A stretch of DNA of 64,000 nt from a virus, in the IMG/VR virus record IMGVR_UViG_3300042889_001061, positions 1-64,000 of that record, one strand, 5' to 3'. Every line of letters starts with the position of its first letter. Position 1 is the stretch's first letter. The position numbers and the translations under genes were made by a program. Below, piece after piece: positions 5,006 to 61,452 of the stretch. Under the pieces are notes generated by a model. The model saw nothing but the letters and a program-made list of their open reading frames with translations, was not told where the DNA came from and did no database searches.

Positions 5006-6052
5006 TTAAAAATCTGATTTGGGTAATACTACTTGGCTCAGTGCTTGACGTTCTGGGAATTCTTGATTACCAACAACAGTGACAGCATCATTATTGATAA
5101 AGCCAGCGGCATTGAGAACTTTATCTCTTAGGTCAACTGGTCCATTATCAGTTTGCATACGTTGCCAACGTGTTCCACGATACGCAAACAATGCCGCGGG
5201 TTTGTAGTCTGTGCGTAAAAAGAAATCACCTTGTTTTGGAGTTAAAGGGAAACTTAGGCCCGAGTCTAATGCTTCTCCGTGATTATAAGTTGGATCAGCA
5301 TCTGCTTGATAAGGCTTGGTTGTGTTCTGCAATATATTACTGCCATCATCTAAAATAGTAGGTGCAAGCTGTTCGCCGCGAGCAATAATAGCTTTGGATA
5401 TTTCCAGTTCTTTTTGATACGTGCTCAATGCATCTTTTAATGTGTCAACACCATTGTCTGTGGGCTGTGATAAAATATCTCTATACTCTTGAGCATCAGT
5501 CATTGGGCTGGCTTTAATGCGCCAAATGTGTGGATACCAAGTTTGACTAAAACCTTCTGCGGCACGACTAGCATCTTGAATAACGTAGAACTTATTAATA
5601 GCTGGCTTGGTTTCGTCCAATAATAAATCATCTCGAATATGCGGTAGTTCTAATACGTCACCGGCCATGAGTTTTCTGCCCATACGTTCAACCATGTCAT
5701 TGGTATGGAAAGAGATATAGATAGTATCAGCACTTAAAAACAAACCGAATTGTGTTAAGTCAAAGTCTTGATCTCCGACATTATAAACTCCGCGAAGTTC
5801 ATATATATCAGGATCATAAATTCTATCACGATTTTCTAAGAATAACAAGTCTTGAATCTTAGTTTCGTTGAGAATGTCGTCGGCTCTATAGTTAGGCTTG
5901 GTCGGATCATTACTGGCACCCTGATCAGCAGGTTGTAAATATTTGTGGATCAACACACCAGTTCCGCCTACCAAAAATTGTTCACGGATAAGTCTATCCA
6001 TGAAATGGTAGTCGTTAGTTTTTTCAGGTTTCCACAGGCTTAGTCTTGGCAT
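5006..6052 (-). CDS. gp14: Neck protein (T4 gp14-like)
   Basis: 348 residues (T4 gp14 has 256). The N-terminal FMDRLIREQFLVGGTGVLIH, the ILNETKIQDLLFLENRDRI region and the GDVLELPHIRD and FYVIQDASRAAEG strands match the gp14 neck family, which joins head and tail with gp13. Extra sequence near residues 265-300 contains GDFFLRTDYKPAALFAYRG, like the repeated module in the sheath and gp15. Its late box lies only 8 nt upstream and no Shine-Dalgarno is visible. Confidence 0.75.
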   Translation of the reverse strand: MPRLSLWKPEKTNDYHFMDRLIREQFLVGGTGVLIHKYLQPADQGASNDPTKPNYRADDILNETKIQDLLFLENRDRIYDPDIYELRGVYNVGDQDFDLTQFGLFLSADTIYISFHTNDMVERMGRKLMAGDVLELPHIRDDLLLDETKPAINKFYVIQDASRAAEGFSQTWYPHIWRIKASPMTDAQEYRDILSQPTDNGVDTLKDALSTYQKELEISKAIIARGEQLAPTILDDGSNILQNTTKPYQADADPTYNHGEALDSGLSFPLTPKQGDFFLRTDYKPAALFAYRGTRWQRMQTDNGPVDLRDKVLNAAGFINNDAVTVVGNQEFPERQALSQVVLPKSDF

Positions 6053-6060
6053 AGTAATAC

Positions 6061-6068
6061 TATTTACC
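6061..6068 (-). promoter_or_regulatory. Late promoter box GGTAAATA (minus strand)
   Basis: It reads GGTAAATA on the minus strand and ends 8 nt before the gp14 ATG. It would drive the operon gp14, gp15, Nudix hydrolase and the 128-residue gene with an extremely short leader. Confidence 0.6.
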
Positions 6069-10383: not shown

Positions 10384-10412
10384 TTGACAACTAGATTCTA
10401 ATGCTATATACT
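10384..10412 (+). promoter_or_regulatory. Sigma70 promoter predicting a leaderless mRNA
   Basis: TTGACA (10384-10389), 17-nt spacer, TATACT (10407-10412), then 6 nt and the ATG at 10419. The transcription start is expected at or next to the A of ATG, and no Shine-Dalgarno exists. Confidence 0.8.
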
Positions 10413-10418
10413 AGCACT

Positions 10419-10904
10419 ATGAATATATATTTAGACATGGACGATGTAGTAGCAGACTGGATGGCAACTGCTAGAGAAATGGTCAAGCGTGACTGGAATT
10501 ACGGAGAACGGATTCCAGACAGCGACTGGAAAAAACTTCAAACACGACAACGTTTTTATCGAGATCTTCCTAAAAAGTCGGGTGCCGATGAACTTGTACA
10601 ATGGTGCAGAGATTACAGAGACCGTACTGGCTGCGGTTTGTTCTTCTTAACAGCACTACCACATGACTATACAATGCCCTATGCTGCCAGCGACAAAATA
10701 TGGTGGGCGCATGAACGCTATCCTGATATCACAGTGTTCTTTGGTCCGTTTAGTCACGACAAATATCGCCATTGTCAAGAAGGCGATATCCTTATTGATG
10801 ATAGAACAAGTAACTGTAGTGAATGGCGTAGTGCTGGCGGGTTATCTCATATATACAAACAATGGCCCGAATGTAAAATCTGGTTAGAGGAGACATTAAA
10901 ATGA
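10419..10904 (+). CDS. 5'(3')-deoxyribonucleotidase-like HAD phosphatase
   Basis: 161 residues. It begins MNIYLDMDDVV, the HAD motif with nucleophile D6 and acid/base D8, in the form seen in 5'(3')-deoxyribonucleotidases. FFLTALPHD gives motif II (Thr), and LIDDRTSN is the C-terminal Asp pair of motif IV. It would dephosphorylate dNMPs, tuning pools together with the dNMP kinase, which overlaps it by 4 nt. The start at 10419 is preferred because translation should begin at the HAD motif and it fits the promoter; an upstream in-frame ATG at 10401 precedes the -10 box. Confidence 0.8.
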   Translation: MNIYLDMDDVVADWMATAREMVKRDWNYGERIPDSDWKKLQTRQRFYRDLPKKSGADELVQWCRDYRDRTGCGLFFLTALPHDYTMPYAASDKIWWAHERYPDITVFFGPFSHDKYRHCQEGDILIDDRTSNCSEWRSAGGLSHIYKQWPECKIWLEETLK

Positions 10905-11538: not shown

Positions 11539-11596
11539 GCTAAATAGCCTGATTTCTCCGAAATAGTATAAATATGTATAACCTATAGAGGAGAAA
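11539..11596 (+). promoter_or_regulatory. Tandem late promoters with inverted repeat around the sheath ribosome site
   Basis: GCTAAATA (11539-11546) and a perfect TATAAATA (11567-11574) precede the sheath gene. TTTCTCC (11553-11559) is complementary to GGAGAAA (11590-11596), which carries the Shine-Dalgarno GGAG. RNA from the second box lacks the left arm and is freely translatable. Confidence 0.65.
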
Positions 11597-11600
11597 ACAA

Positions 11601-14030
11601 ATGGCACTAACATCACCAGGCGTAGAAGTTTCGATTATTGACCAAAGTCAATTTGGATCTGCTGGCCAAGGAACAGTTCCTTTAATTATTTTAGCCACAC
11701 AATCTAATAAAGATAACGTAAGTGGTACTGGCTTTGCAACAGGAACAATTCCTGCAAATGCCAACAAACCTTATTTACTAACAAGTCAACGTGAACTTGT
11801 TGAACAATTTGGTCAACCTAAATTTAAAACAGTAAACGGTACAGCAATACACGGTTCAGAAGTAAACGAATACGGACTAATGGCAGCTTATAGCTATTTA
11901 GGTCTTGCTAACCGTGCTTATGTACTACGTGCAGATATTGATCTGCTACAATTAGAACCAACAGACATTGAACCAGCAGGCGCACCTACCAATGGTACAT
12001 ACTGGTTAGACTTGGCTAATACAAGCTGGGGTATTTTTGAAGCATCAGCAATTGGTACATCTAGCTGGGTTACAAAAACTCCTTTAGTTATCACCGACTC
12101 TGCCGATACTGTCAGTTCTGCAGGTGTAGTTCCTGCTACTTCAATTGGCGCCAATGGTGATTATGCAGTTGTAGCAACTTCTACAGTTTCTAGTTATCAA
12201 GTATATAAAAAAATATCAGGCGCTTGGGAAATTTGTACAACAGCAAACTCTGCAATTTCCACAGTTTTTGTTTCAGCTCACTATAATATTCCTACAGCAA
12301 CAGCGGCTGGTGATGTATGGTTAAAGACTACAAGTCCTAACAATGGTTTAAGTTTAGCAGTTAAAAAATATGTAAGTGCTAATATTCCAGACAATAGCCC
12401 ATGGGTAGTTGTAGCAACTCCAGTTTATGTCAATGACTCGGCAGCTACTACAGGTTTTGCAAGTGCATTATCTGCAGGTAAAGTATATGCTAAAGCAGAC
12501 ACCGGAAGTGCCAATGTAGAATTACGTTATTATGACGGCAGCAACTGGAATGCATTAAATGAACAATCTGGTGCTAGTGCTCCGGTAGGCGCAACAATAG
12601 ACGGTACATTGTGGTACAATACTAGTTTGGCAGTTGACTTATATGTAAAAGCAAATAGTCAATGGGAACCAATAGGCAGCGATATCACTATTGATTCTAA
12701 TGCTCCAAGTAGTCCTGCAAACGGTGATTTCTGGATTGACAGTAGCGATGTAGAAAACTATCCTGGAATTTATGAATACGATGGTAGTTCTTGGGTTTCT
12801 CGCAATGTAACAGACCAAACAACTCCTAACGGTGTTGTATTTGCTGATTTAACCGTTACAGCTAGTGATACTACAAATGGCACAGGTGGAGCAACAGCAG
12901 TTGACGAAAATGCTCCTGATCCTTTATTGTATCCAAATGGTATTTTATTATGGAATGGTATCGTTTCAACAGGTAACGTTAAACAATACAGTGATGTATT
13001 GGATGCCAGTGGTGTTGCTACGGGCGACAAGGCATGGTTTACATTCAGCGGTAACAAAGAAGACGGTAGCCCATATATGTTGCGTAAAGCACAACGTCGA
13101 GCAGTAGTTAAATCATTACAAAGCGCGGTTGCCAGCAATGAAACAATTCGTGAAGAAATGACCTTCTTTACTTTGATTGCGGCTCCAGGTTATCCAGAAC
13201 TAATCGACGAAATGTTGTCATTGAATACAGACCGTAAAGAAACAGCATTTGTTATTGTCGATACTCCAATGCGTTTAGCCCCACAAGGTCAAACATTGAT
13301 CGATTGGATGAGCGGTAATAATGCAAGTAGCACAGGCGAAGATGGTTTAATTGTCAGTGGTGGTTCTGCATATCAGGCAGCATGTTACTACCCAAGTGCA
13401 TTGGCAACTGATTTAAGTGGCAACGATGTTGTTGTTCCAGCAAGTCACGTTGTTCTAAGAACTTATGCATACAACGACCAGGTTGCTTATCCTTGGTTCG
13501 CTCCAGCTGGTTTAACACGCGGTGTTGTAACCAATGCAAGTAACGTGGGTTACATCAACGGAGAAGGCGAATTTATACCAGTGGCATTGACAACAGGTCA
13601 GCGTGATACATTGTATGGCGATGGCAGTAGAGTTGGTTTAAATCCAATTGCACGTTTCCCAGGACAAGGTGTTTATGTTTTCGGTCAGAAAACATTACAA
13701 ACTGGTTCTAGTGCATTAGATAGAGTTAACGTTGCTCGTTTATTGGCTTACTTACGTGAGCGTTTTGATCCGCTGGCTCGTCCGTTTATATTTGAACCCA
13801 ACGACAAGATCACTCGTGCTAATGTAAAACAAGTTTTTGATAGTTTCTTAGGTGAGTTGCTTGCCAAACGTGCTATCTATGACTTCATTGTTGTCTGTGA
13901 TGAAACAAACAACACCCCTGCCAGAATTGACAGAAATGAATTATATGTTGATGTTGCCATCGAGCCAGTTAAGGCCGCTGAGTTCATTTACATTCCAGTT
14001 CGTGTTGTCAACACAGGCGAGTTATCATAA
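11601..14030 (+). CDS. gp18: Tail sheath protein (T4 gp18-like) with large surface insertion
   Basis: 809 residues against 659 in T4. The N-terminus (MALTSPGVEVSIIDQS) and C-terminal half (residues 460-809, including NVARLLAYLRERFDPLARPF and a final beta strand pairing region) are sheath-type: subunits polymerise around the tube and contract. Residues about 125-440 form an insertion with about six repeats of a Gly-Asp/Trp module, for example NGDFWIDSSD then YEYDGSSW (374-398), and NGTYWLDLAN (131-140). Such insertions face outward in myovirus sheaths. A strong late promoter and GGAGAAA site fit very high expression. Confidence 0.9.
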   Translation: MALTSPGVEVSIIDQSQFGSAGQGTVPLIILATQSNKDNVSGTGFATGTIPANANKPYLLTSQRELVEQFGQPKFKTVNGTAIHGSEVNEYGLMAAYSYLGLANRAYVLRADIDLLQLEPTDIEPAGAPTNGTYWLDLANTSWGIFEASAIGTSSWVTKTPLVITDSADTVSSAGVVPATSIGANGDYAVVATSTVSSYQVYKKISGAWEICTTANSAISTVFVSAHYNIPTATAAGDVWLKTTSPNNGLSLAVKKYVSANIPDNSPWVVVATPVYVNDSAATTGFASALSAGKVYAKADTGSANVELRYYDGSNWNALNEQSGASAPVGATIDGTLWYNTSLAVDLYVKANSQWEPIGSDITIDSNAPSSPANGDFWIDSSDVENYPGIYEYDGSSWVSRNVTDQTTPNGVVFADLTVTASDTTNGTGGATAVDENAPDPLLYPNGILLWNGIVSTGNVKQYSDVLDASGVATGDKAWFTFSGNKEDGSPYMLRKAQRRAVVKSLQSAVASNETIREEMTFFTLIAAPGYPELIDEMLSLNTDRKETAFVIVDTPMRLAPQGQTLIDWMSGNNASSTGEDGLIVSGGSAYQAACYYPSALATDLSGNDVVVPASHVVLRTYAYNDQVAYPWFAPAGLTRGVVTNASNVGYINGEGEFIPVALTTGQRDTLYGDGSRVGLNPIARFPGQGVYVFGQKTLQTGSSALDRVNVARLLAYLRERFDPLARPFIFEPNDKITRANVKQVFDSFLGELLAKRAIYDFIVVCDETNNTPARIDRNELYVDVAIEPVKAAEFIYIPVRVVNTGELS

Positions 14031-14031
14031 T

Positions 14032-14039
14032 GATAAATA
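14032..14039 (+). promoter_or_regulatory. Late promoter box GATAAATA
   Basis: Lies 22 nt before the tube gene, immediately after the sheath stop codon, within a small palindrome TTATCA-TAA-TGATAA. Confidence 0.7.
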
Positions 14040-14061
14040 ACATAGCCGAAGGAGAAACAAC

Positions 14062-14673
14062 ATGGCAGATTTAACACAATTTGGAGTTCCAACAACAGGC
14101 ACTAATGCAATGGTGATGCCTAAACTCCAATATCGATTCAGAGTTAACTTGTATAACTTTGGTAGAAACAACGGTAGTACTGTTGAGATGACACAGAATG
14201 TAGTTAGTGTAAATAGACCTAGTCTAACACACGATGAAATTACTTTGGATGCTTACAACAGTCGTGCTTACCTTGCTGGCAAGCACAGCTGGGAACCAAT
14301 TACTTTAACTTTACGCGACGACATCAACGGTACAGTTACCAAGCATGTAGCAAGTCAATTACAGAAACAATTAAACCAAGGTTTACAAAGTGCTCCAACA
14401 GCAGGACGTGACTATAAGTTTGGTATGGTAATTGAACAGCTAGATGGTAGTCAACCAGGGTTAGTCATTGAAAGCTGGAGTTTAAATGGATGTTTCATCC
14501 AAAACGTAAACTACGGTGAAAACAATTACGCAACTAGTGATGTAATGCAAATTACACTACAGATCCGATATGATGCCGCAGACATTCACGGCGATGCAGT
14601 CGGTGCAGCCACTACACAAGGCGCATTGACTACTGGCGTATTACCGATTGGCGCAGGCAACTCTGCAACATAA
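14062..14673 (+). CDS. gp19: Tail tube protein (T4 gp19-like)
   Basis: 203 residues (T4 gp19 has 163). The tube fold is indicated by MPKLQYRFRVNLYNFG, VVSVNRPSLTHDEI, HSWEPITLTLRDDINGTV and the final strand DVMQITLQIRYDAADI. Hexamers of this protein stack to form the inner tube through which DNA passes. It follows the sheath as in other T4-type phages, with its own late box and AAGGAG site. Confidence 0.85.
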   Translation: MADLTQFGVPTTGTNAMVMPKLQYRFRVNLYNFGRNNGSTVEMTQNVVSVNRPSLTHDEITLDAYNSRAYLAGKHSWEPITLTLRDDINGTVTKHVASQLQKQLNQGLQSAPTAGRDYKFGMVIEQLDGSQPGLVIESWSLNGCFIQNVNYGENNYATSDVMQITLQIRYDAADIHGDAVGAATTQGALTTGVLPIGAGNSAT

Positions 14674-20038: not shown

Positions 20039-20046
20039 GGTAAATA
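20039..20046 (+). promoter_or_regulatory. Late promoter box GGTAAATA, leaderless geometry
   Basis: Ends 5 nt before the ATG at 20052; no Shine-Dalgarno precedes that start. Confidence 0.6.
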
Positions 20047-20051
20047 AGTGT

Positions 20052-21320
20052 ATGGCTATAGATTACAACGCAGTTGCAGACAGGATATTTGACCAACTTA
20101 AAGGCTTTGGGCATGACATTATCATCTTTGATGATAAAGGTCGACAAACCGCAAATGCTAAACAAGGCCGTAGTTTTTACAGTAAAGATCAAAAGTTTAC
20201 AGTAGAATTAGATCAAGATGACAATGTTATCAAATTTAAATACGGTACAAGTACAGACATGCCCCGGGTCAAAAAGTTAGTAGATACAATTGGTGCTATA
20301 GCAAAGAAATACCCTCCATTGGGATTAGATAGATTGCCGTACACCGGCAAAGAAATAGAATTAAAGGATGTAGAGAACATGGCAAAAGTCCAAGAGAGTT
20401 TAAGCCCAACAATGGGTTCGACTAAAACTAGTTACCAACAAACCGAAGGTGCTAAACTAATCATTAGACATAACACCGCTGTCAACGAAGAAGTTCGTGG
20501 CAGTCGTAGTCGCAACATCAGCGCATTGTTTATTGAAAACGCACAAGGTGAACGATTCAAATATCCGCACAATCACTTAACTGGTGCTCGTATTATGACT
20601 CAACACGTTGCCGAAGGCGGCACACCATATGATGAAGTCGGACAAAAAATTATTGGACTAAGTGAAGAACGCAATCAACTTTCACAGGTATCCAAGTACA
20701 TTAAAAGCCAAGGCCTGCAAGAACAAGCCGGTGATGTACAATTTGCTGTTACTCAACGTCTAAGCGAAATTAAAGGCCTATTGGGTAGATATAACCCGAC
20801 AAGATTTATGGAAGATAAATCACAGGCCGACGAAACAAATCTGGAAGCACTACAAGAAAAACTAACTAAAAACGTCTTTGACGAAAGCATTGGCACACTA
20901 TTACCAAAACTAAATGGCTATGTAAAACAATATCAACAACAAATGGAAGCAAAACAAGAACTCGAAACTCTAAAACAACAAGTAGAAGAATCAACATCAA
21001 TCCAAGTTAGTGCTATTCCAGATTTAGAAATGATGAGCATGATGGTCTACGAAAGCCCAACTATCAATACCACCGAACTAATCAACATGATTTTACCAGT
21101 GTTAGAAGACGAGGAAGTAAAAACTCGTTTAACTCGCGTATCCGAATATGTACGTGAAGGCAAATTGGATGCCATGGAAGTCGAAAACTTAACTCGTAGC
21201 ATTATTGGTAAGAGCGCAGTTAAAGAATCCAATTACAAAATTGTACATCAATTGAGTACAGTGGATCAAGTGTTTGAATCGGTTATGGCTAAGTTCACGT
21301 TAAAAGAAATACTGAAATAA
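20052..21320 (+). CDS. Late hypothetical protein after terminase
   Basis: 422 residues, no recognised family. An N-terminal alpha/beta domain (residues 1-110, with IIIFDDKGRQTANAKQGRSF) is followed by a second domain (ARIMTQHVAEGGTPYDEVGQ) and a long helical, Gln/Glu-rich C-terminal half (KLNGYVKQYQQQMEAKQELE). It looks like a virion or head-associated late protein. Translation probably starts on a leaderless mRNA. Confidence 0.6.
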   Translation: MAIDYNAVADRIFDQLKGFGHDIIIFDDKGRQTANAKQGRSFYSKDQKFTVELDQDDNVIKFKYGTSTDMPRVKKLVDTIGAIAKKYPPLGLDRLPYTGKEIELKDVENMAKVQESLSPTMGSTKTSYQQTEGAKLIIRHNTAVNEEVRGSRSRNISALFIENAQGERFKYPHNHLTGARIMTQHVAEGGTPYDEVGQKIIGLSEERNQLSQVSKYIKSQGLQEQAGDVQFAVTQRLSEIKGLLGRYNPTRFMEDKSQADETNLEALQEKLTKNVFDESIGTLLPKLNGYVKQYQQQMEAKQELETLKQQVEESTSIQVSAIPDLEMMSMMVYESPTINTTELINMILPVLEDEEVKTRLTRVSEYVREGKLDAMEVENLTRSIIGKSAVKESNYKIVHQLSTVDQVFESVMAKFTLKEILK

Positions 21321-30483: not shown

Positions 30484-30507
30484 AAGCAACTGAAAGGTTG
30501 CTTTTTT
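30484..30507 (+). terminator. Rho-independent terminator
   Basis: AAGCAAC (30484-30490), 6-nt loop TGAAAG, GTTGCTT (30497-30503), followed by a T run to 30507. Confidence 0.85.
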
Positions 30508-30518
30508 GTGACTGAATA

Positions 30519-30527
30519 TGTTATACT
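30519..30527 (+). promoter_or_regulatory. Extended -10 promoter of uvsW, leaderless geometry
   Basis: TGTTATACT gives TGn-TATACT (30519-30527), with no good -35. The ATG at 30534 is 6 nt downstream of the -10, so the mRNA is expected to begin at that ATG. Confidence 0.65.
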
Positions 30528-30533
30528 ATGTCT

Positions 30534-31988
30534 ATGACATCTTGTACAATACATATTAAAGACGAAGTTAACATTAAGATATCTGACTTAGTAACTGCTA
30601 CTAGACGTAAACTAGAAAAAGAATTCAAGTACTTTCAGCCCTGGGCTTACCACAGTCCAGCATATAAGCTAGGACGCTGGGATGGTTGTGTTAGTTATTT
30701 TAGTCTAGGCGGTAGTACTTACTTTAATCTTCTAGATAGAATACTACCCATTCTAGTTGATGAAGGTTACAATATTGAAATTGATGACCAAAGAACTAAT
30801 CATAACTTTCAATTCCGTGAGGTAACTGAAACAACACATGAACAAACTATTTGGCCCAAAGGACATGTCAATGAAGGACAACCAGTATTACTACGTGACT
30901 ATCAAGTAGATGCTATTAACAAGTTCCTAAACAATTTACAATGTGTACAAGAGATCAGTACTGGTGCCGGCAAAACTATTACAACAGCAACATTATCCGG
31001 AAGTGTGCAGGACTATGGTAGAACATTAATTATTGTTCCTAACAAAGACTTGGTCAAGCAGACATTAGAAGATTATGAACTATTGGGTCTTGATGTAGGT
31101 GTTTACTTTGGCGATAAGAAAGAACTGGGTAAGACACATACCATCTGCACATGGCAAAGTCTTAACGTATTAGAAAAACGTTTTAAAGACGGACTCAGTC
31201 CTTTAAGTCTAGAGGAGTTTGGTCAAGACTTGGTAGCAATTATTGTCGATGAAGTTCACCAAGCAAAAGCAGATGTACTTAAGGCATTGTTAAGCGGACC
31301 ATTTGCTAATGTACCTATTCGTTGGGGATTGACAGGAACTATTCCTAAAGAAGATTTTGAAAAAGTTGGATTAATTGCAACCTTAGGTCCTGTGGTAAAT
31401 AAGATCGCTGCCAAGGATCTACAGGATCAAGGTGTGTTAGCTAACTGCACAGTTAACGTCATTCAATTACAAGAGACAGCACAATACCAAACATATCAAG
31501 AAGAACTGACATTCTTAACGACAAATACTCGTCGCATAGATTTCATTGCAGAGTTCGTAAAAAGTCTTGCCTTGTCTGGAAACACATTAGTATTAGTAGA
31601 TAGAATTAAAGCAGGTGAATTGCTCTGTGAAAGGATCACAGATAGTGTATTCGTCAGCGGCGCAATGAAAACAGGTGATAGAAAAGAACACTATGATGAA
31701 ATTAAAGACAGCGATGGCAAGGTTATTGTGGCGACTTATGGTGTGGCCTCTGTGGGTATTAATATTCCTCGTATTTTTAATCTGGTTCTTTTGGAGCCCG
31801 GAAAGAGCTTTGTTCGCGTTATCCAAAGCATTGGACGAGGTATTAGAAAAGCTCAAGATAAGGACCATGTAGAGATTTGGGACTTGACATCAAGTGCAAA
31901 GTTTAGTAAGAAGCATCTTACTACAAGAAAGAAATACTATGAGGAAGCTGGCTATCCTTATAAAATTGAGAAAGTAAAATACCTATGA
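30534..31988 (+). CDS. uvsW: DNA/RNA helicase UvsW (superfamily 2)
   Basis: 484 residues from this start. The N-terminal domain (about 1-110) contains EKEFKYFQPWAYHSPAYKLG, as in UvsW. Motif I STGAGKT, motif II VDEVHQAKA (DEVH), motif III LTGT and motif VI QSIGRGIRKAQDKDHV are present. UvsW unwinds R-loops and branched DNA, shifting replication from origin-dependent to recombination-dependent mode. The ATG at 30534 is preferred over 30528 because the latter would lie upstream of the predicted transcript start. Confidence 0.88.
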   Translation: MTSCTIHIKDEVNIKISDLVTATRRKLEKEFKYFQPWAYHSPAYKLGRWDGCVSYFSLGGSTYFNLLDRILPILVDEGYNIEIDDQRTNHNFQFREVTETTHEQTIWPKGHVNEGQPVLLRDYQVDAINKFLNNLQCVQEISTGAGKTITTATLSGSVQDYGRTLIIVPNKDLVKQTLEDYELLGLDVGVYFGDKKELGKTHTICTWQSLNVLEKRFKDGLSPLSLEEFGQDLVAIIVDEVHQAKADVLKALLSGPFANVPIRWGLTGTIPKEDFEKVGLIATLGPVVNKIAAKDLQDQGVLANCTVNVIQLQETAQYQTYQEELTFLTTNTRRIDFIAEFVKSLALSGNTLVLVDRIKAGELLCERITDSVFVSGAMKTGDRKEHYDEIKDSDGKVIVATYGVASVGINIPRIFNLVLLEPGKSFVRVIQSIGRGIRKAQDKDHVEIWDLTSSAKFSKKHLTTRKKYYEEAGYPYKIEKVKYL

Positions 31989-32485
31989 ATATATTAACTT
32001 CTAATAATGAAGCATTTGAGTTGAATTCTTTACCAGAGGAAGTGGAAGATCTGCGATATGGAGTTCTTGATTGGAACGATCCTAAGAACGTTGACTATCA
32101 TTTTGTGCCATTAATCTTCATGGAAACATTTCATGCGCCTGCCGCTGTATTAAAAATCGGTGACTATATTATTCAAGTTCCCCTGGATTGGTATATTGTC
32201 ATAGGTGAAAAAGATCACGGCGACCCAGAGATTGTTCCTATTATGAACATCAATGATCGGGGTTTCAGTGCATTTGCTTTTAACCCTATTAGTAGTTTTA
32301 GATTAGACTTTCAGCCACTGGAAATTATCAATGTGTTTCAAGACATTCGTTGGTATACACCTAAACTTAAACATGGACATATTCTAGCAGTGCCGTTAGA
32401 AACAGGTCCCAAGCCTTTATGTGCTTACTTTGTTAAAGAAACTACCAAGCTACCGGAAGTATTGTCCATAGACAAAATGTATTAA
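31985..32485 (+). CDS. Hypothetical protein after uvsW
   Basis: 166 residues with no recognised function. Compact mixed fold, rich in Pro and aromatics (YHFVPLIFMETFHAPAAVLK; YIIQVPLDWYIVIGEKDHGD; LEIINVFQDIRWYTPKL). Overlaps uvsW by 4 nt (ATGA), so it is co-translated with it. No membrane or signal sequences. Possibly a partner of replication proteins. Confidence 0.6.
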   Translation: MNILTSNNEAFELNSLPEEVEDLRYGVLDWNDPKNVDYHFVPLIFMETFHAPAAVLKIGDYIIQVPLDWYIVIGEKDHGDPEIVPIMNINDRGFSAFAFNPISSFRLDFQPLEIINVFQDIRWYTPKLKHGHILAVPLETGPKPLCAYFVKETTKLPEVLSIDKMY

Positions 32486-32497
32486 AGAGCGTATAAT
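32469..32497 (+). promoter_or_regulatory. Sigma70 promoter, leaderless geometry
   Basis: TAGACA (32469-32474), 17-nt spacer, TATAAT (32492-32497), then 5 nt to the ATG at 32503. No Shine-Dalgarno. Confidence 0.75.
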
Positions 32498-32502
32498 ACA
32501 GT

Positions 32503-32988
32503 ATGGCAACAAAAGCTCCGATGTTAGATATGTTTAAGCGAGTACTTCCAGCTTTGGATACTCGCAACAAGAAACTCTACGAGAATCTCAGTGAAGAAGA
32601 AATGAAAGGGTTCAGTCCCTGGCTTGTTCAACGATATTTAAGCAGTGCAGAAAGTGCCAACAATGCTGTCATTGAACATTATTTAATTATGACCAATGAC
32701 ATTGTCAATGTTAACTTCAGTGAAGTAAAAGATCCTGAAATGACTTGGAAGTTAATGAGTATGGTTGGTATTGGTAAAAGTCTCAAGCACCCATACATTG
32801 CTCCTGGTGGCGGCAAGAGAAAAAAGAAAAATGCTTTTAAGGCATGGCTCTGTGAGCAATATCCTCACTTAGATGATCAAGAATTAGATATCTGGATCAG
32901 CAACTTAGATAAAAAATCCGCAAGGGATATGTTGGAACAATACCATGTTAAAGACAAAGATGTTATCTCTAGTGCCAATGACTTATAA
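32503..32988 (+). CDS. Clamp-loader small subunit-like protein (T4 gp62-like)
   Basis: 161 residues. The series EEMKGFSPWLVQRYLSSAES, PEMTWKLMSMVGIGKSLKHP, a Lys-rich GGGKRKKKNAFKAWLCEQYP and LDIWISNLDKKSARDMLEQY follows the short gp62 proteins of aquatic T4-type phages ('K-x-F-x-PW-x3-R-x-LS' start, central basic loop, C-terminal helix). gp62 with gp44 loads the sliding clamp. Neither gp44 nor gp45 is in the window, so the call rests on sequence pattern alone. Confidence 0.5.
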   Translation: MATKAPMLDMFKRVLPALDTRNKKLYENLSEEEMKGFSPWLVQRYLSSAESANNAVIEHYLIMTNDIVNVNFSEVKDPEMTWKLMSMVGIGKSLKHPYIAPGGGKRKKKNAFKAWLCEQYPHLDDQELDIWISNLDKKSARDMLEQYHVKDKDVISSANDL

Positions 32989-35378: not shown

Positions 35379-35747
35379 TTATAATTTTTGAACTAGTTGA
35401 ATTTGTCTGCGTTTAATGCGTTTAGTGATAATGTTTTGTAGACTAACTGCTTCGCCATGTAGCAATTCAAAATCCTTGACATTATATGTTCGAAGACTAT
35501 AGCTGAACCGTTTAAATTTAGGTCCTATAAACAAATTAATTGGTAGCTGTCTATTACTCTGCCACCACCATTCTTCTCCGCACTCTAGGAATTCCTGGCG
35601 ATCTTCCTTGCAGTTTAATACGTTTAACACATATATGCTGGCCAGAGTTTGAGTATAGTTTTGTATTATACCTATGACTTCATCTTCCCCTGCCCTGCAT
35701 AGGCTTAAGAAAGGGAAGTTTTCTAATATTTCTTTGTGATCTGACAT
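35379..35747 (-). CDS. Small hypothetical protein upstream of the desaturase
   Basis: 122 residues from MSDHKEILENF. Contains SLCRAGEDEVIGIIQNYTQ, a Trp cluster (EEWWWQSNRQLPINLF) and a basic C-terminus (TKRIKRRQIQLVQKL). No recognised family. It is the first gene of a two-gene late operon with the desaturase; the late box ends 6 nt before its ATG. Confidence 0.6.
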   Translation of the reverse strand: MSDHKEILENFPFLSLCRAGEDEVIGIIQNYTQTLASIYVLNVLNCKEDRQEFLECGEEWWWQSNRQLPINLFIGPKFKRFSYSLRTYNVKDFELLHGEAVSLQNIITKRIKRRQIQLVQKL

Positions 35748-35753
35748 TGTCAA

Positions 35754-35793
35754 TATTTAGCAGCCATTTCAATTCAATTAATTTAAATAAATA
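35754..35793. promoter_or_regulatory. Divergent late promoters, both leaderless in geometry
   Basis: On the minus strand GCTAAATA (35761 down to 35754) ends 6 nt before the ATG at 35747. On the plus strand ATAAATA (35787-35793) ends 5 nt before the ATG at 35799. Neither gene has a Shine-Dalgarno. Confidence 0.65.
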
Positions 35794-35798
35794 TAACT

Positions 35799-36614
35799 AT
35801 GAGCGATACATTCACATTACTAGATTATCCGCAACGAAGCGTATTAATATACTCTGATGGATACAGCAGGACAAAAAACATGCCATTTAGCACAACACGA
35901 AAAACGGTCTACAAAGGAGTAGACACGAAGCTGGGTTTTGATATAAAAAATCAAGACCGCAAACCTGTTAACCTGCTAGGTAAAACTATCATGGTCAATG
36001 TCATGCAGGTCAGACGCGGCGAGTTAGTATTACAGCGCAGAGCACAGATCAAAGAACCTCAAAATGGTTATTGCGAGTTTAGTATATTTGGCTATGATTT
36101 AACTGATCTGGAACCAGGAATATATCAACTCAGTGCTCAACTATACGAAGATGATGGTATGGCTCGAAGCTTGTATTCTGATTTAAACAGAGCGGCTACC
36201 ATGGAAATTGAATTAGTAGACGGCGCATATCCTAAATTCTTTAATAGTACATTGTTGCAATTTACACAAGATAACGACACGATGATTAGCCAGCCTGTAG
36301 CAAGTAACTTACAGAAAAACGACAGCAGTACACTACATACTCTTCAAATCGAAACAACTAATTTTAAAGGTAGATTAACTGCTTTTGGTAGTTTAGAATA
36401 CGGTAGTATGGGCAATTACAGTCCTATTAGATTTATCGACGGACAATATTGGCTACCTCTTGATTCATCACCTACAAGCCCAACAATTGGAATAACAGGT
36501 ACACATCAAACTCAGGGTTGGAACTGGCGCGGAAGTTTCCGTTGGATAAAAGTGGTATACACACCCGACACTGATAACACCGGAACAGTTGACAAAATAC
36601 TTTATAGAAGTTAA
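35799..36614 (+). CDS. Virion structural protein, probably baseplate or fibre-adaptor
   Basis: 271 residues, beta-rich. The N-terminal 130 residues (DTKLGFDIKNQDRKPVNLLG; GYDLTDLEPGIYQLSAQLYE) look like an immunoglobulin-like or BppU-type domain. The C-terminal part (residues 160-271) has LHTLQIETTNFKGRLTAFGS and a Trp-rich region (GWNWRGSFRWIKVVY), typical of carbohydrate-binding or virion surface modules. It is late-expressed and lies just before the primase gene. Confidence 0.6.
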   Translation: MSDTFTLLDYPQRSVLIYSDGYSRTKNMPFSTTRKTVYKGVDTKLGFDIKNQDRKPVNLLGKTIMVNVMQVRRGELVLQRRAQIKEPQNGYCEFSIFGYDLTDLEPGIYQLSAQLYEDDGMARSLYSDLNRAATMEIELVDGAYPKFFNSTLLQFTQDNDTMISQPVASNLQKNDSSTLHTLQIETTNFKGRLTAFGSLEYGSMGNYSPIRFIDGQYWLPLDSSPTSPTIGITGTHQTQGWNWRGSFRWIKVVYTPDTDNTGTVDKILYRS

Positions 36615-45064: not shown

Positions 45065-45093
45065 TAGACTATACACTGATTTTAGTGTATAAT
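45065..45093 (+). promoter_or_regulatory. Sigma70-type promoter, leaderless geometry
   Basis: TAGACT (45065-45070), 17-nt spacer, TATAAT (45088-45093), then exactly 6 nt to the ATG at 45100; no Shine-Dalgarno. Confidence 0.65.
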
Positions 45094-45099
45094 GTGTAT

Positions 45100-45765
45100 A
45101 TGCTATTAAATCCAATTTACGAATACAAAAAACTCAATCGTGACGAAACTACAGGCAAGCGTCTTTATGCTTGCCCTGACGGAACAAAAGTTCCCAGCGT
45201 CACAACAGTGCTAGACTCGACCAAAGATAAAACATTCTTAATTGAATGGCGCAAACGTGTGGGTGATGCCGAAGCAACTCGTATTAGCACAGAGTCTGCG
45301 GGTCTGGGCACACTGATGCACACACATTTAGAATATCATGTACTAGGTAAAGAACGTCCACAAGGTAACAACCAAGTTCAGATACTGGCTCGTGACATGG
45401 CTGATACTATGATTAATCAAGCCTTCTGTGACATTGAAGAGGTATGGGGCATTGAAGCACCTTTATACTACCCCGGACTGTATGCAGGTACTAGTGATAT
45501 GATCGGAGTACATAAAGGAACTCCAGCAATCATTGACCATAAGACAACTAAAAAGCCTAAGAAGAGAGAATGGATCGAAGATTACTTTCTACAATGTTGC
45601 GCCTATGCATTGGCACATAATGAAGTACATGGTACTAATATTAAAAAATGTGTAATTAACATTATTGACCGAGATGCTAAACTACAACCATTTATCATAG
45701 AAGGCAACGAGTTTGATCACTACAGTGATCTCTGGGCTCAGCGTCTTGATCAGTATTATAAATAA
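45100..45765 (+). CDS. PD-(D/E)XK exonuclease
   Basis: 221 residues. The nuclease core is visible: LGTLMHTHLEYH (helix with Glu), YAGTSDMIGVHKG (catalytic Asp), AIIDHKTTKKPKK (D-x-K) and YFLQCCAYALAHNEVHG (final helix with Gln-x3-Y). This layout matches the RecB/MGME1-like phage exonucleases that degrade or process DNA ends. The start at 45100 fits the promoter; an in-frame GTG at 45085 lies before the -10 box. Confidence 0.82.
   Translation: MLLNPIYEYKKLNRDETTGKRLYACPDGTKVPSVTTVLDSTKDKTFLIEWRKRVGDAEATRISTESAGLGTLMHTHLEYHVLGKERPQGNNQVQILARDMADTMINQAFCDIEEVWGIEAPLYYPGLYAGTSDMIGVHKGTPAIIDHKTTKKPKKREWIEDYFLQCCAYALAHNEVHGTNIKKCVINIIDRDAKLQPFIIEGNEFDHYSDLWAQRLDQYYK
45757..45764 (+). promoter_or_regulatory. 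Late promoter box TATAAATA
   Basis: A perfect late box spanning the end of the exonuclease gene; it ends 8 nt before the GTG at 45773. Confidence 0.65.
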
Positions 45766-45772
45766 GCATCTA

Positions 45773-46225
45773 GTGGAAAACAATTTAAGCATCTGGTACA
45801 AGACTACTACAGAAAAAATCCTAGCTTGGAGAGAGCTAAGACAAAATGCTGTAGATATGTCAGTGGACGGTTTAATTGAAGCAGTCAATACATGGTGGAC
45901 ATTTTCACCGTGGGTACGTAAAACAATAGATCCTTACAAGCCAGAAACATGGCCCAGTCCTTGGGATATGATCAATCGTGGTGAATTTTGTCGCAGTGCT
46001 ATTGCATTGGGACAAGCATATACACTTTGGATAACTGCACCCAATAGCAATGTAGAGCTATGGTTGGTAAATAATTTCAGCGAAAAAGATGTACATCTAG
46101 TAGTAGTTATTGATGAGAAGACAGTGCTAAATTATACTCTAGGTCATGTATTGGGTATTGAAGAATGCGACTTTGAGACTTTAAACAAGATCGTCAAAAG
46201 CGATTTAGCCCACATTAAAATATAA
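45773..46225 (+). CDS. Trp-rich hypothetical protein
   Basis: 150 residues from GTG at 45773. Many Trp residues (AVNTWWTFSPWVRKTIDPYK; PETWPSPWDMINRGEFCRSA) precede a C-terminal mixed region (VVVIDEKTVLNYTLGHVLGI). Family not recognised; the pattern is that of a conserved aquatic-phage protein. No Shine-Dalgarno, so it is probably translated from a very short leader. Confidence 0.55.
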   Translation: MENNLSIWYKTTTEKILAWRELRQNAVDMSVDGLIEAVNTWWTFSPWVRKTIDPYKPETWPSPWDMINRGEFCRSAIALGQAYTLWITAPNSNVELWLVNNFSEKDVHLVVVIDEKTVLNYTLGHVLGIEECDFETLNKIVKSDLAHIKI

Positions 46226-51585: not shown

Positions 51586-51821
51586 AAATAGAAATTTATA
51601 CAAAGGACTCATGTCCATACTGCACACAAGCCAAGAACTTGTTTAAAAGCAAAGGCTGGGAGTTCACAGAACACTATATCACAGCAGAAACAAGAGAAAC
51701 ATTGTTAGAAAATCTAACAACAAGATTGGGGTCAGCACCACGCACAGTGCCTCAAATCTTTATCGATGATCAGGCCATTGGAGGTTATACTGATCTAGTC
51801 TCGTGGTTAAAAACTCAATAA
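51582..51821 (+). CDS. nrdC: Glutaredoxin (NrdC-like)
   Basis: 79 residues. Active site CPYC (11-14) in YTKDSCPYCTQAK, cis-Pro TVPQIFIDD and GGYTDLVSWL at the C-terminus. It reduces the C-terminal Cys pair of NrdA, and could also serve the peroxiredoxin encoded at 22595. Confidence 0.92.
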   Translation: MKIEIYTKDSCPYCTQAKNLFKSKGWEFTEHYITAETRETLLENLTTRLGSAPRTVPQIFIDDQAIGGYTDLVSWLKTQ

Positions 51822-51824
51822 ATA
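51818..51824 (+). promoter_or_regulatory. Late box ATAAATA, leaderless geometry
   Basis: Overlaps the glutaredoxin stop; ends 5 nt before the ATG at 51830; no Shine-Dalgarno. Confidence 0.55.
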
Positions 51825-51829
51825 CATAT

Positions 51830-52138
51830 ATGTTAAAAGAAAACAAAATTGGTCATACAGTCAGTATGAAACTAGCCAACGGCGACGAAGTCGTGGGCAA
51901 AATTACAGGTCAAACCGCAGAGGGTCTTACTATCAGTAAGCCTGTTATTTTAGCTGCCAGCAGAGATGGATTACAAATGATTCCTTTCATGATGACTGCT
52001 GAACCCAACAGCGACTTTGTATTCAAAGCACATACAATTATGTGCGTTGCAGACACTAACGATCAAGTAGCAGATGCTTATCTTGAAAGTACAACTGGAA
52101 TCAAACCAGTAAGAAATTCAAGTAGTATTATATTATAA
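51830..52138 (+). CDS. Small Sm-like (LSm-fold) late protein
   Basis: 102 residues. The start IGHTVSMKLANGDEVVGKIT resembles the Sm1 motif of LSm/Hfq-type barrels (beta strand, 'NG-x-x-x-G'). The rest is beta-rich with a C-terminal acidic helix (DTNDQVADAYLESTTG). It lies directly before the PAAR spike-tip gene, so a baseplate role is also possible. Late box 5 nt upstream. Confidence 0.5.
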   Translation: MLKENKIGHTVSMKLANGDEVVGKITGQTAEGLTISKPVILAASRDGLQMIPFMMTAEPNSDFVFKAHTIMCVADTNDQVADAYLESTTGIKPVRNSSSIIL

Positions 52139-52421: not shown

Positions 52422-52429
52422 GGTAAATA
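52422..52429 (+). promoter_or_regulatory. Late box GGTAAATA, leaderless geometry
   Basis: Ends 5 nt before the ATG at 52435; no Shine-Dalgarno. Confidence 0.6.
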
Positions 52430-52434
52430 CTAGT

Positions 52435-54597
52435 ATGGCAACATTACCACCAATTAATGCAGGCGCATTAAAACTAACCTTTCCTACTAACCTTCCTAAG
52501 AACGAAAAAGATCTTATCTGTATGCTACTTGCTGGCAGATTAAAAGATCTACTTAATGGACGCTTGGTATGTGCTCAACTTGCCATAGATGATTTAATCA
52601 AAGATGCAACTGGAATCAGTGCATTAAGCTCACTGCGTGATTCTCTTGTCGGAATGAAATCTGCAATTGACAGAATGAAATCTGCAACAGGCTACGACAA
52701 GATATTACAAGGTGTGAATCAAGCACTGGGTCAAGTCAATAACGTATTCAGCTTAGGAGGGCTGTGCCCCAGCCCAATTCGTGCTCCTATGATACCAGAC
52801 TTGTTGGGGCAGTTGAATGCAAATCTATTTGGCCAAGGACTTAATATTTTAAATGCATTGGGCAAGGTCAGTAACCCTAGCATGTGCTTGGGCGGCGGCC
52901 CCGGCGGCTTTGGTATCAATTGGAACAGTATGCCAGGCGACTTAAGAAATCTTAAAAATGCAATCAAGCAAGCAGGTAATACACCATCTGCTACGATTAA
53001 TGCTTTTAATCAAAATTTAAAATCGCAGACATCTAGATTAAAATCAGAAGTAAAAAGACTAGAACAAAATTTAGCAGATCCATTAGGACTAAACAATAAA
53101 CTTAATACAGCAAGAAATTTGCAACGTGCTAAGAGTGTCAGCGATGGGTATCCGGTAAAAGACAGTCGCGGCATTCTTCATGACAACGTTTTAAAGTCAA
53201 TGGTATCTGCTGACATTGAATCAGTGATAGACAATGGAGATCGAACTCCAATTAAGTATGTGACTAAACCAATTCTTGACTATTGCGGAGTTGTAATAGG
53301 CTATGAAAAAGTAGCAGTCACTGGTGATCCGGCATATATAGGCTGGGACCCAAATGGAGATCTTAGTCTCAACACAGATCATCCAACCGTTAATCCCGTT
53401 GCAGGTTATGCCAGCTTTAAATATACGTTTAAGCAAGAAGGCAATACAGTCAAGGTCTATGATAGCATAGGCGCAGTAGTCACCGATTTGTCTTTGTCGA
53501 GAGGTGTTGCTTACAGACTTAATTTTGAATTAACTAACAAAGAAATTCAATTTTATTCTGATCCTGCTTATACAACGGTATGGACAGAAGGTTTAACCTA
53601 CAGTAGAAATCCGGAATACGGTACAGACATGGAAATTATAACTCCTGATGTTAATACAAAATTTGTCCGAGGAGAACTAGATTGGGCAGTATTAATAGAA
53701 AATCCAACAACACCCAATATCGTTTATTGGAAAACTAATAACAATAGCTCGGCTGGCAGTTTTGTTATCACAGGCGAAACTTCGATCCCATTGTCAGATA
53801 GAACGTATGACATATCGATGGCAGTTAAAAAAGCCTGCCTACATTTAGTAAACGTTCCAGCAAGCTCTGCGATTCCTGTAAACTACGAAAACTTTTTAGG
53901 ATCGCCTACTTCGTTTACTACGACAAGAACATATAACACAGTAACAACAATATACGATTCAAGTGGTAATATAACAAGTACAACATCTTTATCTTCGATA
54001 CCAATGACAGTAAAAGAAGATACAGAAACCAGTGACGAACTAGGAAACACTGATCCAAATAATAAAGTAATTAAATCAGTGGCAAGATTTAATGCTGCCT
54101 CGTATTTAATAACCAAACGTTATATAAGCACAGAAAACGGATTGGAATATACTCAGATTTATTTTTATCTATCTCCTAGTCAAAACGAAGCCAATGCTAC
54201 ATATTGTATATTATTGAAGTTTGATGATCCAATTACAATTTTAAATTCTTCTAAGTTACCTTATACTGATAATTATTCTTATAAGTTAACCAGATTAATA
54301 AAATCTGGCAGCGAGTTCATTCCAGTAACTACACCAATTTCAAATTCGGATGAAACCAAATTCGAACTAGTGCAATCAAATGGCAAAGAATTTATTAGAT
54401 GGAATCTTACTTCGTTTAATGAATCTGACAAAGCAACTGTTCCTAAAAATGAATTTATATTTCAAACTGATATAGAAATAGATCCCACAGATCTTTCAAG
54501 GAATTTTATTGTTTCTAATCCAAAAGAATACAGAACATATTTCTATTTTAAATTCGGTGACGGAACCGCCATCCAATCTACTATTACACTGATATAA
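52435..54597 (+). CDS. Large baseplate-associated virion protein
   Basis: 720 residues, not assigned to a T4 gene. Residues 1-240 are helical and Gly/Leu-rich (LICMLLAGRLKDLLNGRLVC; a coiled-coil end at SEVKRLEQNLADPLGLNNKL). Residues 250-720 are beta-rich, with Thr/Ser/Asn repeats typical of virion surface or lever proteins (SVIDNGDRTPIKYVTKPILD; TRTYNTVTTIYDSSGNITST). It directly follows the PAAR tip, supporting a baseplate hub or wedge role. Translation probably begins on a leaderless mRNA. Confidence 0.6.
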   Translation: MATLPPINAGALKLTFPTNLPKNEKDLICMLLAGRLKDLLNGRLVCAQLAIDDLIKDATGISALSSLRDSLVGMKSAIDRMKSATGYDKILQGVNQALGQVNNVFSLGGLCPSPIRAPMIPDLLGQLNANLFGQGLNILNALGKVSNPSMCLGGGPGGFGINWNSMPGDLRNLKNAIKQAGNTPSATINAFNQNLKSQTSRLKSEVKRLEQNLADPLGLNNKLNTARNLQRAKSVSDGYPVKDSRGILHDNVLKSMVSADIESVIDNGDRTPIKYVTKPILDYCGVVIGYEKVAVTGDPAYIGWDPNGDLSLNTDHPTVNPVAGYASFKYTFKQEGNTVKVYDSIGAVVTDLSLSRGVAYRLNFELTNKEIQFYSDPAYTTVWTEGLTYSRNPEYGTDMEIITPDVNTKFVRGELDWAVLIENPTTPNIVYWKTNNNSSAGSFVITGETSIPLSDRTYDISMAVKKACLHLVNVPASSAIPVNYENFLGSPTSFTTTRTYNTVTTIYDSSGNITSTTSLSSIPMTVKEDTETSDELGNTDPNNKVIKSVARFNAASYLITKRYISTENGLEYTQIYFYLSPSQNEANATYCILLKFDDPITILNSSKLPYTDNYSYKLTRLIKSGSEFIPVTTPISNSDETKFELVQSNGKEFIRWNLTSFNESDKATVPKNEFIFQTDIEIDPTDLSRNFIVSNPKEYRTYFYFKFGDGTAIQSTITLI

Positions 54598-60531: not shown

Positions 60532-61437
60532 TTATTGTTTAATTTCTAGTTTATTGTTTTGTATAAATTTAGTCAACGCTCGATTTGATTTTAATACAGA
60601 ATTTATCATCCAGGGCTCTGTTGAGCCTATGGGCAATAAACCTGCAACAAACGTAGTATCTTTAAATTCCTTGCTGGATAATATCTTCGAAACATCTGCG
60701 ATAATTTTATTCTTATTGTCAGTTTCCATAGATTTAGAAACTACTAATGCTACATAACTTTGATATGGAAATGGTTCTTTAAAGTATTGTTCCCATGTAA
60801 GAATTTTATCTCCCATGTCATGACTGGCAAATAACACAGTGATTCGTGGATCAGTGATTATTACTTTGATGCCTGCATAGTTGCCAAACGTACAATCTAC
60901 ATTTCCAGCCAGTACGTCCAATGCACCTTTGTTGCCGCCTGCAGGATAAGGTATTGCCAAATGCTTGCCTTTGGCATGAACAAACAAAGATTCGGATGCA
61001 ATATGTTCGGAGCTGCCATAACCGTTAATGGCAAAACTCAATGATTTTGTTGTTGATAAAAAGTCGTCAAACGTTTTGATTCCTAGTTTTGAATTACATA
61101 TTAATAAATTTGGAAGAACAGCAACGACTGCTAATATTTCCAAGTCTGTGTCTGGATTGTATTCCAAATCTTTAAACATCATTGGATTGGTTACATATAT
61201 TTGTGGTACAGTGGCCATTAAAACACTGTTGCCTTGTAAGACATGTTTGACTGCGATTCTGCCGGCACCACCAGGACGATTTTGCACAATATAGCCAGCA
61301 GACGCTGGTAAGTTTTTTGTGATCAATCTGGCAATTCTATCGCTGGGTCCACCCGGAGCATGATGAACAGTGAATTCTACAGCATGAGCCGAAATGCATA
61401 TACACATTCCCAAAAGTATTTTTTTAAGTTTATTCAT
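60532..61437 (-). CDS. Bug/TctC-family periplasmic solute-binding protein
   Basis: 301 residues. Signal peptide MNKLKKILLGMCICISAHA. The Bug signature is present: FTVHHAPGGPSDRIARLITK, VQNRPGGAGRIAVKHVL, ATVPQIYVTNPMM, then SFAINGYGSSEHIASE and IPYPAGGNKGALDVLAGNVD. The family binds carboxylates or other small anions for tripartite tricarboxylate transporters and is hugely expanded in betaproteobacteria. Full length, slightly short of the usual 320-330 residues. No membrane components are encoded, so it must work with host permeases, or as a receptor decoy. Confidence 0.88.
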   Translation of the reverse strand: MNKLKKILLGMCICISAHAVEFTVHHAPGGPSDRIARLITKNLPASAGYIVQNRPGGAGRIAVKHVLQGNSVLMATVPQIYVTNPMMFKDLEYNPDTDLEILAVVAVLPNLLICNSKLGIKTFDDFLSTTKSLSFAINGYGSSEHIASESLFVHAKGKHLAIPYPAGGNKGALDVLAGNVDCTFGNYAGIKVIITDPRITVLFASHDMGDKILTWEQYFKEPFPYQSYVALVVSKSMETDNKNKIIADVSKILSSKEFKDTTFVAGLLPIGSTEPWMINSVLKSNRALTKFIQNNKLEIKQ

Positions 61438-61444
61438 AGAATAA

Positions 61445-61452
61445 TATTTAGT
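61445..61452 (-). promoter_or_regulatory. Late box ACTAAATA (minus strand)
   Basis: Ends 7 nt before the ATG of the Bug gene; no Shine-Dalgarno is visible. Confidence 0.5.

What the first reader, a model, noticed from the sequence alone, without database searches (positions are those of the whole stretch)
10384..10421. Leaderless mRNAs predicted at early and late promoters throughout the window
Seen: -10 boxes end 5-6 nt before the start codon at 10419, 30534, 32503 and 45100. Late boxes end 5-8 nt before starts at 20052, 35799, 45773, 51830 and 52435, and on the minus strand before 6052, 35747 and 61437. None of these starts has a Shine-Dalgarno. The spacing equals the usual distance from the -10 or late box to the transcript start, so translation would begin at the 5' end. 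T4 itself uses leaders. This suggests a second initiation mode, perhaps favoured by 70S ribosomes late in infection.
Basis: partly seen in the sequence, partly recalled or inferred. Interest (0 to 1): 0.8.

Follow-up and report, generated by a model that had tools for sequence, protein, structure and literature searches.

The report
Phage genes predicted to lack leaders
Dozens of genes in a clade of uncultured giant phages have their promoter placed so that the messenger RNA should begin exactly at the start codon, with no ribosome-binding leader, a spacing that is conserved across the clade and absent from its cultured relatives and from T4.

Summary
All twelve named starts have a promoter box ending 5-8 nt upstream and no Shine-Dalgarno (SD). 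With gene starts called without reference to boxes, TAAATA (the T4-type late box) is the only non-SD hexamer strongly enriched 4-8 nt before starts in this phage. The same spike, at exactly 5 nt, recurs in five of six large relatives; the sixth (G006) peaks at 6-9 nt. Distances are bimodal: about 5 nt without SD, or 16-32 nt with SD. T4 late boxes occupy -13 to -6, so 5 nt puts the transcript start on the A of AUG. Sigma70-like promoters show the same two classes (5-8 and 17-35 nt). At one virion gene the 5-nt spacer length is kept in 67 loci while its sequence takes 23 forms. T4 and the cultured relatives PA5oct, Phosso, Atu_ph07 and Vibrio 2.275.O lack the spike. Leaderless phage transcripts are known (Thermus phage phiYS40), so this is a new variant. 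The same phage encodes a full-length IF3 beside bS21. RNA 5' ends were not measured and the host is unknown.

The parts
10384..10421 (+). sigma70-like promoter TTGACA-N17-TATACT, 6 nt, ATG at 10419 (5'(3')-deoxyribonucleotidase); predicted leaderless
   Evidence: phrog_2643 match from residue 2; -10 plus about 6 nt plus ATG kept in 12 of 13 distinct orthologous contexts
30498..30536 (+). TTGCTT-N18-TATACT (extended -10), 6 nt, ATG at 30534 (DNA helicase); predicted leaderless
   Evidence: orthologues in G002 and G006 keep TATACT and a near start without SD
32469..32505 (+). TAGACA-N17-TATAAT, 5 nt, ATG at 32503 (phrog_11758, unknown function); predicted leaderless
   Evidence: G001 and G002 orthologues TATAAT-5 nt-ATG
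45065..45102 (+). TAGACT-N17-TATAAT, 6 nt, ATG at 45100 (exonuclease); predicted leaderless
   Evidence: G001, G002 and G003 orthologues have a -10 6-8 nt before ATG
20041..20054 (+). late box TAAATA, 5 nt, ATG at 20052 (virion structural protein, downstream of terminase); predicted leaderless
   Evidence: 5-nt spacer conserved in 67 loci with 23 spacer sequences
35788..35801 (+). late box TAAATA, 5 nt, ATG at 35799 (virion structural protein); divergent to 35747(-)
   Evidence: box 5 nt before the start in G001, G002, G003, and also in PA5oct EST35_0222
45759..45775 (+). late box TAAATA, 8 nt, GTG at 45773 (unknown); weakest late case, non-AUG
   Evidence: G001 and G002 orthologues have a 21-nt distance and a GTG start
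51819..51832 (+). late box TAAATA, 5 nt, ATG at 51830 (phrog_527); predicted leaderless
   Evidence: G003 orthologue same geometry
52424..52437 (+). late box TAAATA, 5 nt (CTAGT), ATG at 52435 (720 aa, unknown); predicted leaderless
   Evidence: identical geometry in G001 and G002
6050..6066 (-). late box TAAATA, 8 nt, ATG at 6052 (virion structural protein); near-leaderless
   Evidence: 7-nt spacing in G001, G003 and G006; longer leaders in G005 and PA5oct with the same N-terminus
35745..35759 (-). late box TAAATA, 6 nt, ATG at 35747 (phrog_11637); divergent partner of 35799
   Evidence: G001, G002 and G006 orthologues also 6 nt
61435..61450 (-). late box TAAATA, 7 nt, ATG at 61437 (TctC-type solute-binding protein)
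11569..11603 (+). contrast: leadered late promoter, TAAATA 26 nt before ATG with SD (tail sheath)
14034..14064 (+). contrast: leadered late promoter, 22 nt with SD GGAG (tail tube)

Best explanation
These are real promoters that place the transcription start on, or within a few bases of, the start codon, so the genes are expressed from leaderless or near-leaderless mRNAs. Late ones are T4-type gp55 promoters (TAAATA core, -11 to -6) with the initiating A of AUG at +1; early ones are host sigma70-type promoters with a -10 ending 5-8 nt before AUG. The ribosome must start at a 5'-terminal AUG without SD pairing, most probably as an intact 70S with fMet-tRNA, while other genes of the same phage use leaders with an SD. 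Shown by sequence: geometry, bimodality, missing SD, conservation of spacer length with variable spacer sequence, clade restriction. Inferred: the exact RNA 5' end, the 70S route, and any regulatory purpose.
For: Sharp 5-nt peak of TAAATA and a valley at 10-15 nt in this phage and in G001-G005 (G006 peaks at 6-9 nt); 29 ortholog families at exactly 5 nt against at most 5 for any permuted hexamer. Published T4 geometry, TATAAATA at -13 to -6, predicts +1 exactly 5 nt after the box (PMC1524935). Sigma70-like pairs peak at 5-8 nt (30 families; 5 at 10-16; 74 at 17-35). SD strength: 5% and 0% of box-proximal late and early starts reach -4 kcal/mol, against 76% of leadered late starts. Spacer of exactly 5 nt in 67 loci with 23 different sequences while protein identity falls to about 30%. 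The base before the start is a pyrimidine in 27 of 29 late 5-nt families against 46% elsewhere (p=3e-7), as expected at a transcription start on DNA. 32 of 76 such late genes are divergent from their upstream neighbour, where read-through cannot supply a leader (against 80 of 1250 no-box genes, p=8e-17). Orthologues begin at the same Met whether leadered or not (6052 and 20052 families). Six relatives encode a gp55-type late sigma.
Against: No RNA 5' end was measured. The gene caller is home-made. The SD comparison is partly mechanical, since a box at 4-9 nt occupies the SD position. AUG use is not significantly higher than elsewhere (71/77 against 540/637, p=0.09), and 45773 is GTG. Spacings of 6-9 nt may leave 1-4 nt leaders. 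Co-directional genes may also be reached by read-through. The host, and so its tolerance of leaderless mRNA, is unknown.
Confidence: 0.85

Rival explanations
1. Near-leaderless rather than truly leaderless: start sites scatter by a few bases, leaving 1-5 nt of 5' UTR, and 30S or 70S ribosomes handle these like leaderless mRNAs.
For: 22 families have the late box at 4 or 6-9 nt rather than 5; 6052 is at 7-8 nt in several genomes; G006 peaks at 6-9 nt.
Against: The peak at exactly 5 nt is much the largest (29 families against 4-6 at each of 4, 6, 7, 8 and 9 nt), and -1 is a pyrimidine there.
Confidence: 0.15
2. The boxes are incidental or serve other transcripts; the mRNA starts upstream, and translation begins by coupling to the upstream gene or by an SD-independent A/U-rich site.
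For: 44 of 76 late box-proximal starts follow a co-directional gene, often within 25 nt; the genome is 61% A+T.
Against: Permuted A/T hexamers show no 5-nt peak; spacer length is fixed while its sequence varies; strong enrichment at divergent promoters; outgroup phages with the same late box lack the peak.
Confidence: 0.06
3. Leaderless starts need no phage-specific control: they reflect a host that already translates leaderless mRNAs well, or simple genome compaction at divergent and tightly packed promoters.
For: Both early and late promoters show it; the trait is clade-wide, so it fits a shared host type; late leaderless starts are enriched at divergent pairs. Leaderless genes are known to be common in several bacterial lineages (general knowledge).
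Against: A majority of the promoters keep leaders with strong SDs in the same genomes, including tail sheath and tail tube; cultured relatives are just as compact but leadered.
Confidence: 0.4

Closest known systems
Leaderless middle/late mRNAs of Thermus phage phiYS40 (described in review PMC3594737)
   Same: A phage whose genes are widely expressed from mRNAs without leader or SD, beside other leadered transcripts.
   Different: There the class is middle/late with host IF2 up and IF3 down; here early and late promoters are both mixed, late promoters are of the T4 gp55 type, and the phage itself carries an IF3 gene.
T4 late promoters (TATAAATA, gp55/gp33/gp45)
   Same: Same core TAAATA and a gp55-type sigma encoded by the relatives.
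   Different: T4 late boxes sit mostly 17-28 nt before starts; none within 8 nt in 49 kb.
Arenbergviridae phage PA5oct and jumbo phages Phosso, Atu_ph07, Vibrio 2.275.O
   Same: Nearest cultured relatives by terminase (44-53% identity), with the same late box at the orthologous gene.
   Different: No 5-nt spike and a longer leader at the orthologue of 20052, with a clear SD in Phosso and Atu_ph07. One PA5oct gene, EST35_0222, does have the 5-nt geometry.
Leaderless mRNAs of bacteria (for example lambda cI, mycobacteria, Caulobacter)
   Same: AUG at the 5' end, no SD.
   Different: Here coupled to a viral promoter with fixed spacing across a phage clade.

Membership tests
Leaderless mRNA genes | Transcript 5' end at or within a few nt of the start codon | not testable with these tools
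   Inferred from the box-to-start distance and published T4 geometry.
Leaderless mRNA genes | No Shine-Dalgarno upstream | tested here: met
   5% (late) and 0% (early) with dG <= -4, against 76% for leadered late starts; partly mechanical.
Leaderless mRNA genes | AUG strongly preferred as start | tested here: inconclusive
   92% AUG against 85%, p=0.09.
T4-type late promoters | TATAAATA-like box with strict core | tested here: met
   TAAATA core; A favoured just upstream and G or A before it, other positions free.
T4-type late promoters | gp55-family late sigma encoded | tested here: met
   phrog_12791 and phrog_234 hits in six relatives and PA5oct; not in the incomplete 111-kb record of the window.
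T4-type late promoters | Activation by the sliding clamp (gp45) | not testable with these tools
   Biochemical property.
phiYS40-type leaderless phage expression | Leaderless restricted to middle/late class | tested here: not met
   Sigma70-like promoters also peak at 5-8 nt.
phiYS40-type leaderless phage expression | IF2/IF3 balance shifted during infection | not testable with these tools
   A phage IF3 gene exists but its effect is unknown.

The most novel reading that the evidence does not exclude
The phage runs two translation channels and sets the balance between them with its own initiation components: a full-length phage IF3 and a phage bS21 (encoded side by side, after ClpX) modify host ribosomes so that leaderless and SD-led phage mRNAs are used at different rates or times.
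Probability: 0.12. Interest if true: 0.88.

Novelty: new variant of a known kind. Interest (0 to 1): 0.63.

Why it matters
It would show that T4-type late transcription can be wired directly to 5'-AUG translation in a widespread clade of uncultured giant phages. It gives a ready list of about 50 late gene families, plus early ones, with leadered orthologues in cultured phages, so gain and loss of leaders can be studied gene by gene. It also flags that start prediction can miss or misplace such genes (several here were called at a wrong upstream or downstream start).

Tried and rejected
Chance A/T matches: rejected by composition-matched permutations and by replication in relatives. Mis-called starts with a better SD start downstream: 7 of 76 have one within 30 codons, no more than the 177 of 1491 background. 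A phage-encoded initiator tRNA as an aid to leaderless starts: the Met tRNA in this record looks like an elongator. bS21 or IF3 as the cause of the trait: bS21 also occurs in leadered PA5oct, Phosso and Atu_ph07, and IF3 was found only in G000, G001 and three near relatives while G002-G006 have the trait without it in the sequence held. Ribosome hibernation factor HPF: not found. Host: the TctC gene hints at a lineage with many TctC copies, but the best identity is only 35%, and the two GTDB hits lie in one marine MAG that may hold misbinned phage contigs; host left open. An E. coli-like 16S tail was assumed for SD scoring.

Full report
What it is. The window is the first 64 kb of a 111,144-base IMG/VR virus record, a contractile-tailed phage (sheath, tube, T4-type terminase) whose nearest cultured relatives are jumbo phages: PA5oct-type Pseudomonas phages, Sinorhizobium phage Phosso, Agrobacterium phage Atu_ph07 and Vibrio phage 2.275.O, all under 60% terminase identity. 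IMG/VR holds at least 280 stretches encoding related terminases; 80 were fetched.

Observation. 30534 has a weak -35 and 45773 starts with GTG; these are the two weakest cases.

Is it more than chance? I called genes with a codon-usage model that ignores boxes and SDs, then counted every hexamer by its distance to the start. Besides SD words, TAAATA is the only hexamer strongly enriched at 4-8 nt (10 against 0.47), 7 of them at exactly 5 nt. A second group of TAAATA sites lies at 17-27 nt, with one site between 10 and 16. The same procedure on six large relatives gives a TAAATA excess at 4-8 nt each time (p from 7e-8 to 9e-23), with the spike at 5 nt in five of them; G006 instead spreads over 6-9 nt. 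In G005 a variant box, TAAGTA, shows the same spacing. PA5oct has only 2 at 5 nt; T4's late region, Phosso, Atu_ph07 and Vibrio 2.275.O have none, with their late boxes mostly about 16-35 nt upstream. Pooled and counted once per ortholog family, 29 families have the box at 5 nt; the best of 14 permuted hexamers has 5. Sigma70-like promoters (at most 2 mismatches) give 30 families at 5-8 nt, 5 at 10-16 and 74 at 17-35.

Why 5 nt means leaderless. In T4 the late box TATAAATA occupies -13 to -6 (PMC1524935), so five bases (-5 to -1) lie between the box and +1; a start codon 5 nt after the box has its A at +1. The relatives encode a gp55-type late sigma. The DNA base at -1 is a pyrimidine in 27 of 29 such families, against 46% of other genes. 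That suits a transcription start; it would be hard to explain as an mRNA feature, because that base would not be in the mRNA. The valley at 10-15 nt is what one expects if a transcript either starts at the AUG or must be long enough to carry an SD.

Conservation. At the gene after terminase (20052) the spacer is exactly 5 nt in 67 loci with 23 different spacer sequences, and 4 nt in 7 more; three exceptions in the automatic table are contigs that end inside the terminase gene, and three (L024, L025, L070) read as 5 nt on inspection. The terminase tree places the leaderless loci together, with PA5oct, Phosso, Atu_ph07, the Vibrio phage and one marine locus (L170) outside (quick tree only). The four cultured outgroups have the late box and a longer leader there, with a clear SD in Phosso and Atu_ph07. 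So the parsimonious history is loss of the leader in the ancestor of this clade, but long branches make the root uncertain. At 6052 the same N-terminus is used with 7-8 nt spacing in G000, G001, G003 and G006, and with a longer leader in G005 and PA5oct. In all, 48 ortholog families have at least one late leaderless-type member.

Mechanism. Shown: geometry, lack of SD, conservation, clade restriction. Inferred: initiation at a 5'-terminal AUG, in E. coli mainly by 70S ribosomes, hindered by excess IF3 and helped by IF2 and fMet-tRNA (review PMC9031893). Leaderless late starts are strongly enriched at divergent gene pairs (32 of 76 against 80 of 1250), for example 35747(-)/35799(+) and 72879(-)/72991(+), where read-through from upstream genes cannot provide a leader. 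Tail sheath and tail tube keep leaders with SDs, which suggests, without proving, that strong expression uses the leadered mode.

Early-type promoters show the same two classes, and the gp55 gene itself is preceded by a sigma70-like promoter 6-7 nt from its ATG in G001, G002 and G004. So the mode is not late-specific.

An unexpected neighbour. The same record encodes ClpX, a full-length IF3 (both domains) and bS21 in one cluster at record positions 74782-76754, outside the window. IF3 and bS21 genes are known in huge phages (PMC7162821). Because IF3 governs discrimination against leaderless mRNAs, a phage IF3 in a phage with many predicted leaderless genes is a real lead. But the trait is clade-wide while IF3 was seen only in G000, G001 and three close contigs, so IF3 is not needed for it.

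Novelty. Leaderless phage transcripts are known (phiYS40 in review PMC3594737; lambda cI in PMC9031893). My literature searches found no report of T4-type late promoters set for leaderless mRNA, but the library lacks most subscription papers. I file it as a new variant of a known kind.

Noticed in passing
record positions 74782-76754 (L007:11782-13754), outside the window: Phage-encoded ClpX, full-length IF3 (176 aa, N and C domains) and bS21 in one cluster; IF3 and bS21 also adjacent in relative G001.
   Followed up: partly
PA5oct MK797984 144985 (EST35_0222): A cultured phage's structural protein (ESI-MS/MS note) has TAAATA exactly 5 nt before its ATG, like its orthologue at window 35799: a ready test case.
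   Followed up: partly
G001:C1:111873, G002:C1:86449, G004:C1:62796(-): The gene for the gp55-type late sigma is itself preceded by a sigma70-like promoter 6-7 nt from its ATG, so predicted leaderless.
   Followed up: partly
G005 (L121-L129): In this relative TAAGTA joins TAAATA as a box 4-7 nt before starts (8 genes against 0.15 expected): an apparent late-box variant.
   Followed up: partly
60532-61437 (-): TctC-type solute-binding protein gene, unusual for a phage (no match in 50,697 phage records), with a late box 7 nt before its ATG.
   Followed up: partly
record 72025-72879(-), 79810-81201(-), 105036-106451(+): Three radical-SAM proteins, two with SPASM domains, each with TAAATA exactly 5 nt before ATG.
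   Followed up: no
L170, L171 (GTDB MAG Gammaproteobacteria MED685): Two contigs of one marine MAG carry relatives of this phage terminase, probably misbinned phage sequence.
   Followed up: no
record 104734-110955 (L009): Ten tRNA genes clustered in about 6 kb (for example Leu, Arg, Thr, Ile, Tyr, Asp, Trp x2, Lys, Met).
   Followed up: no
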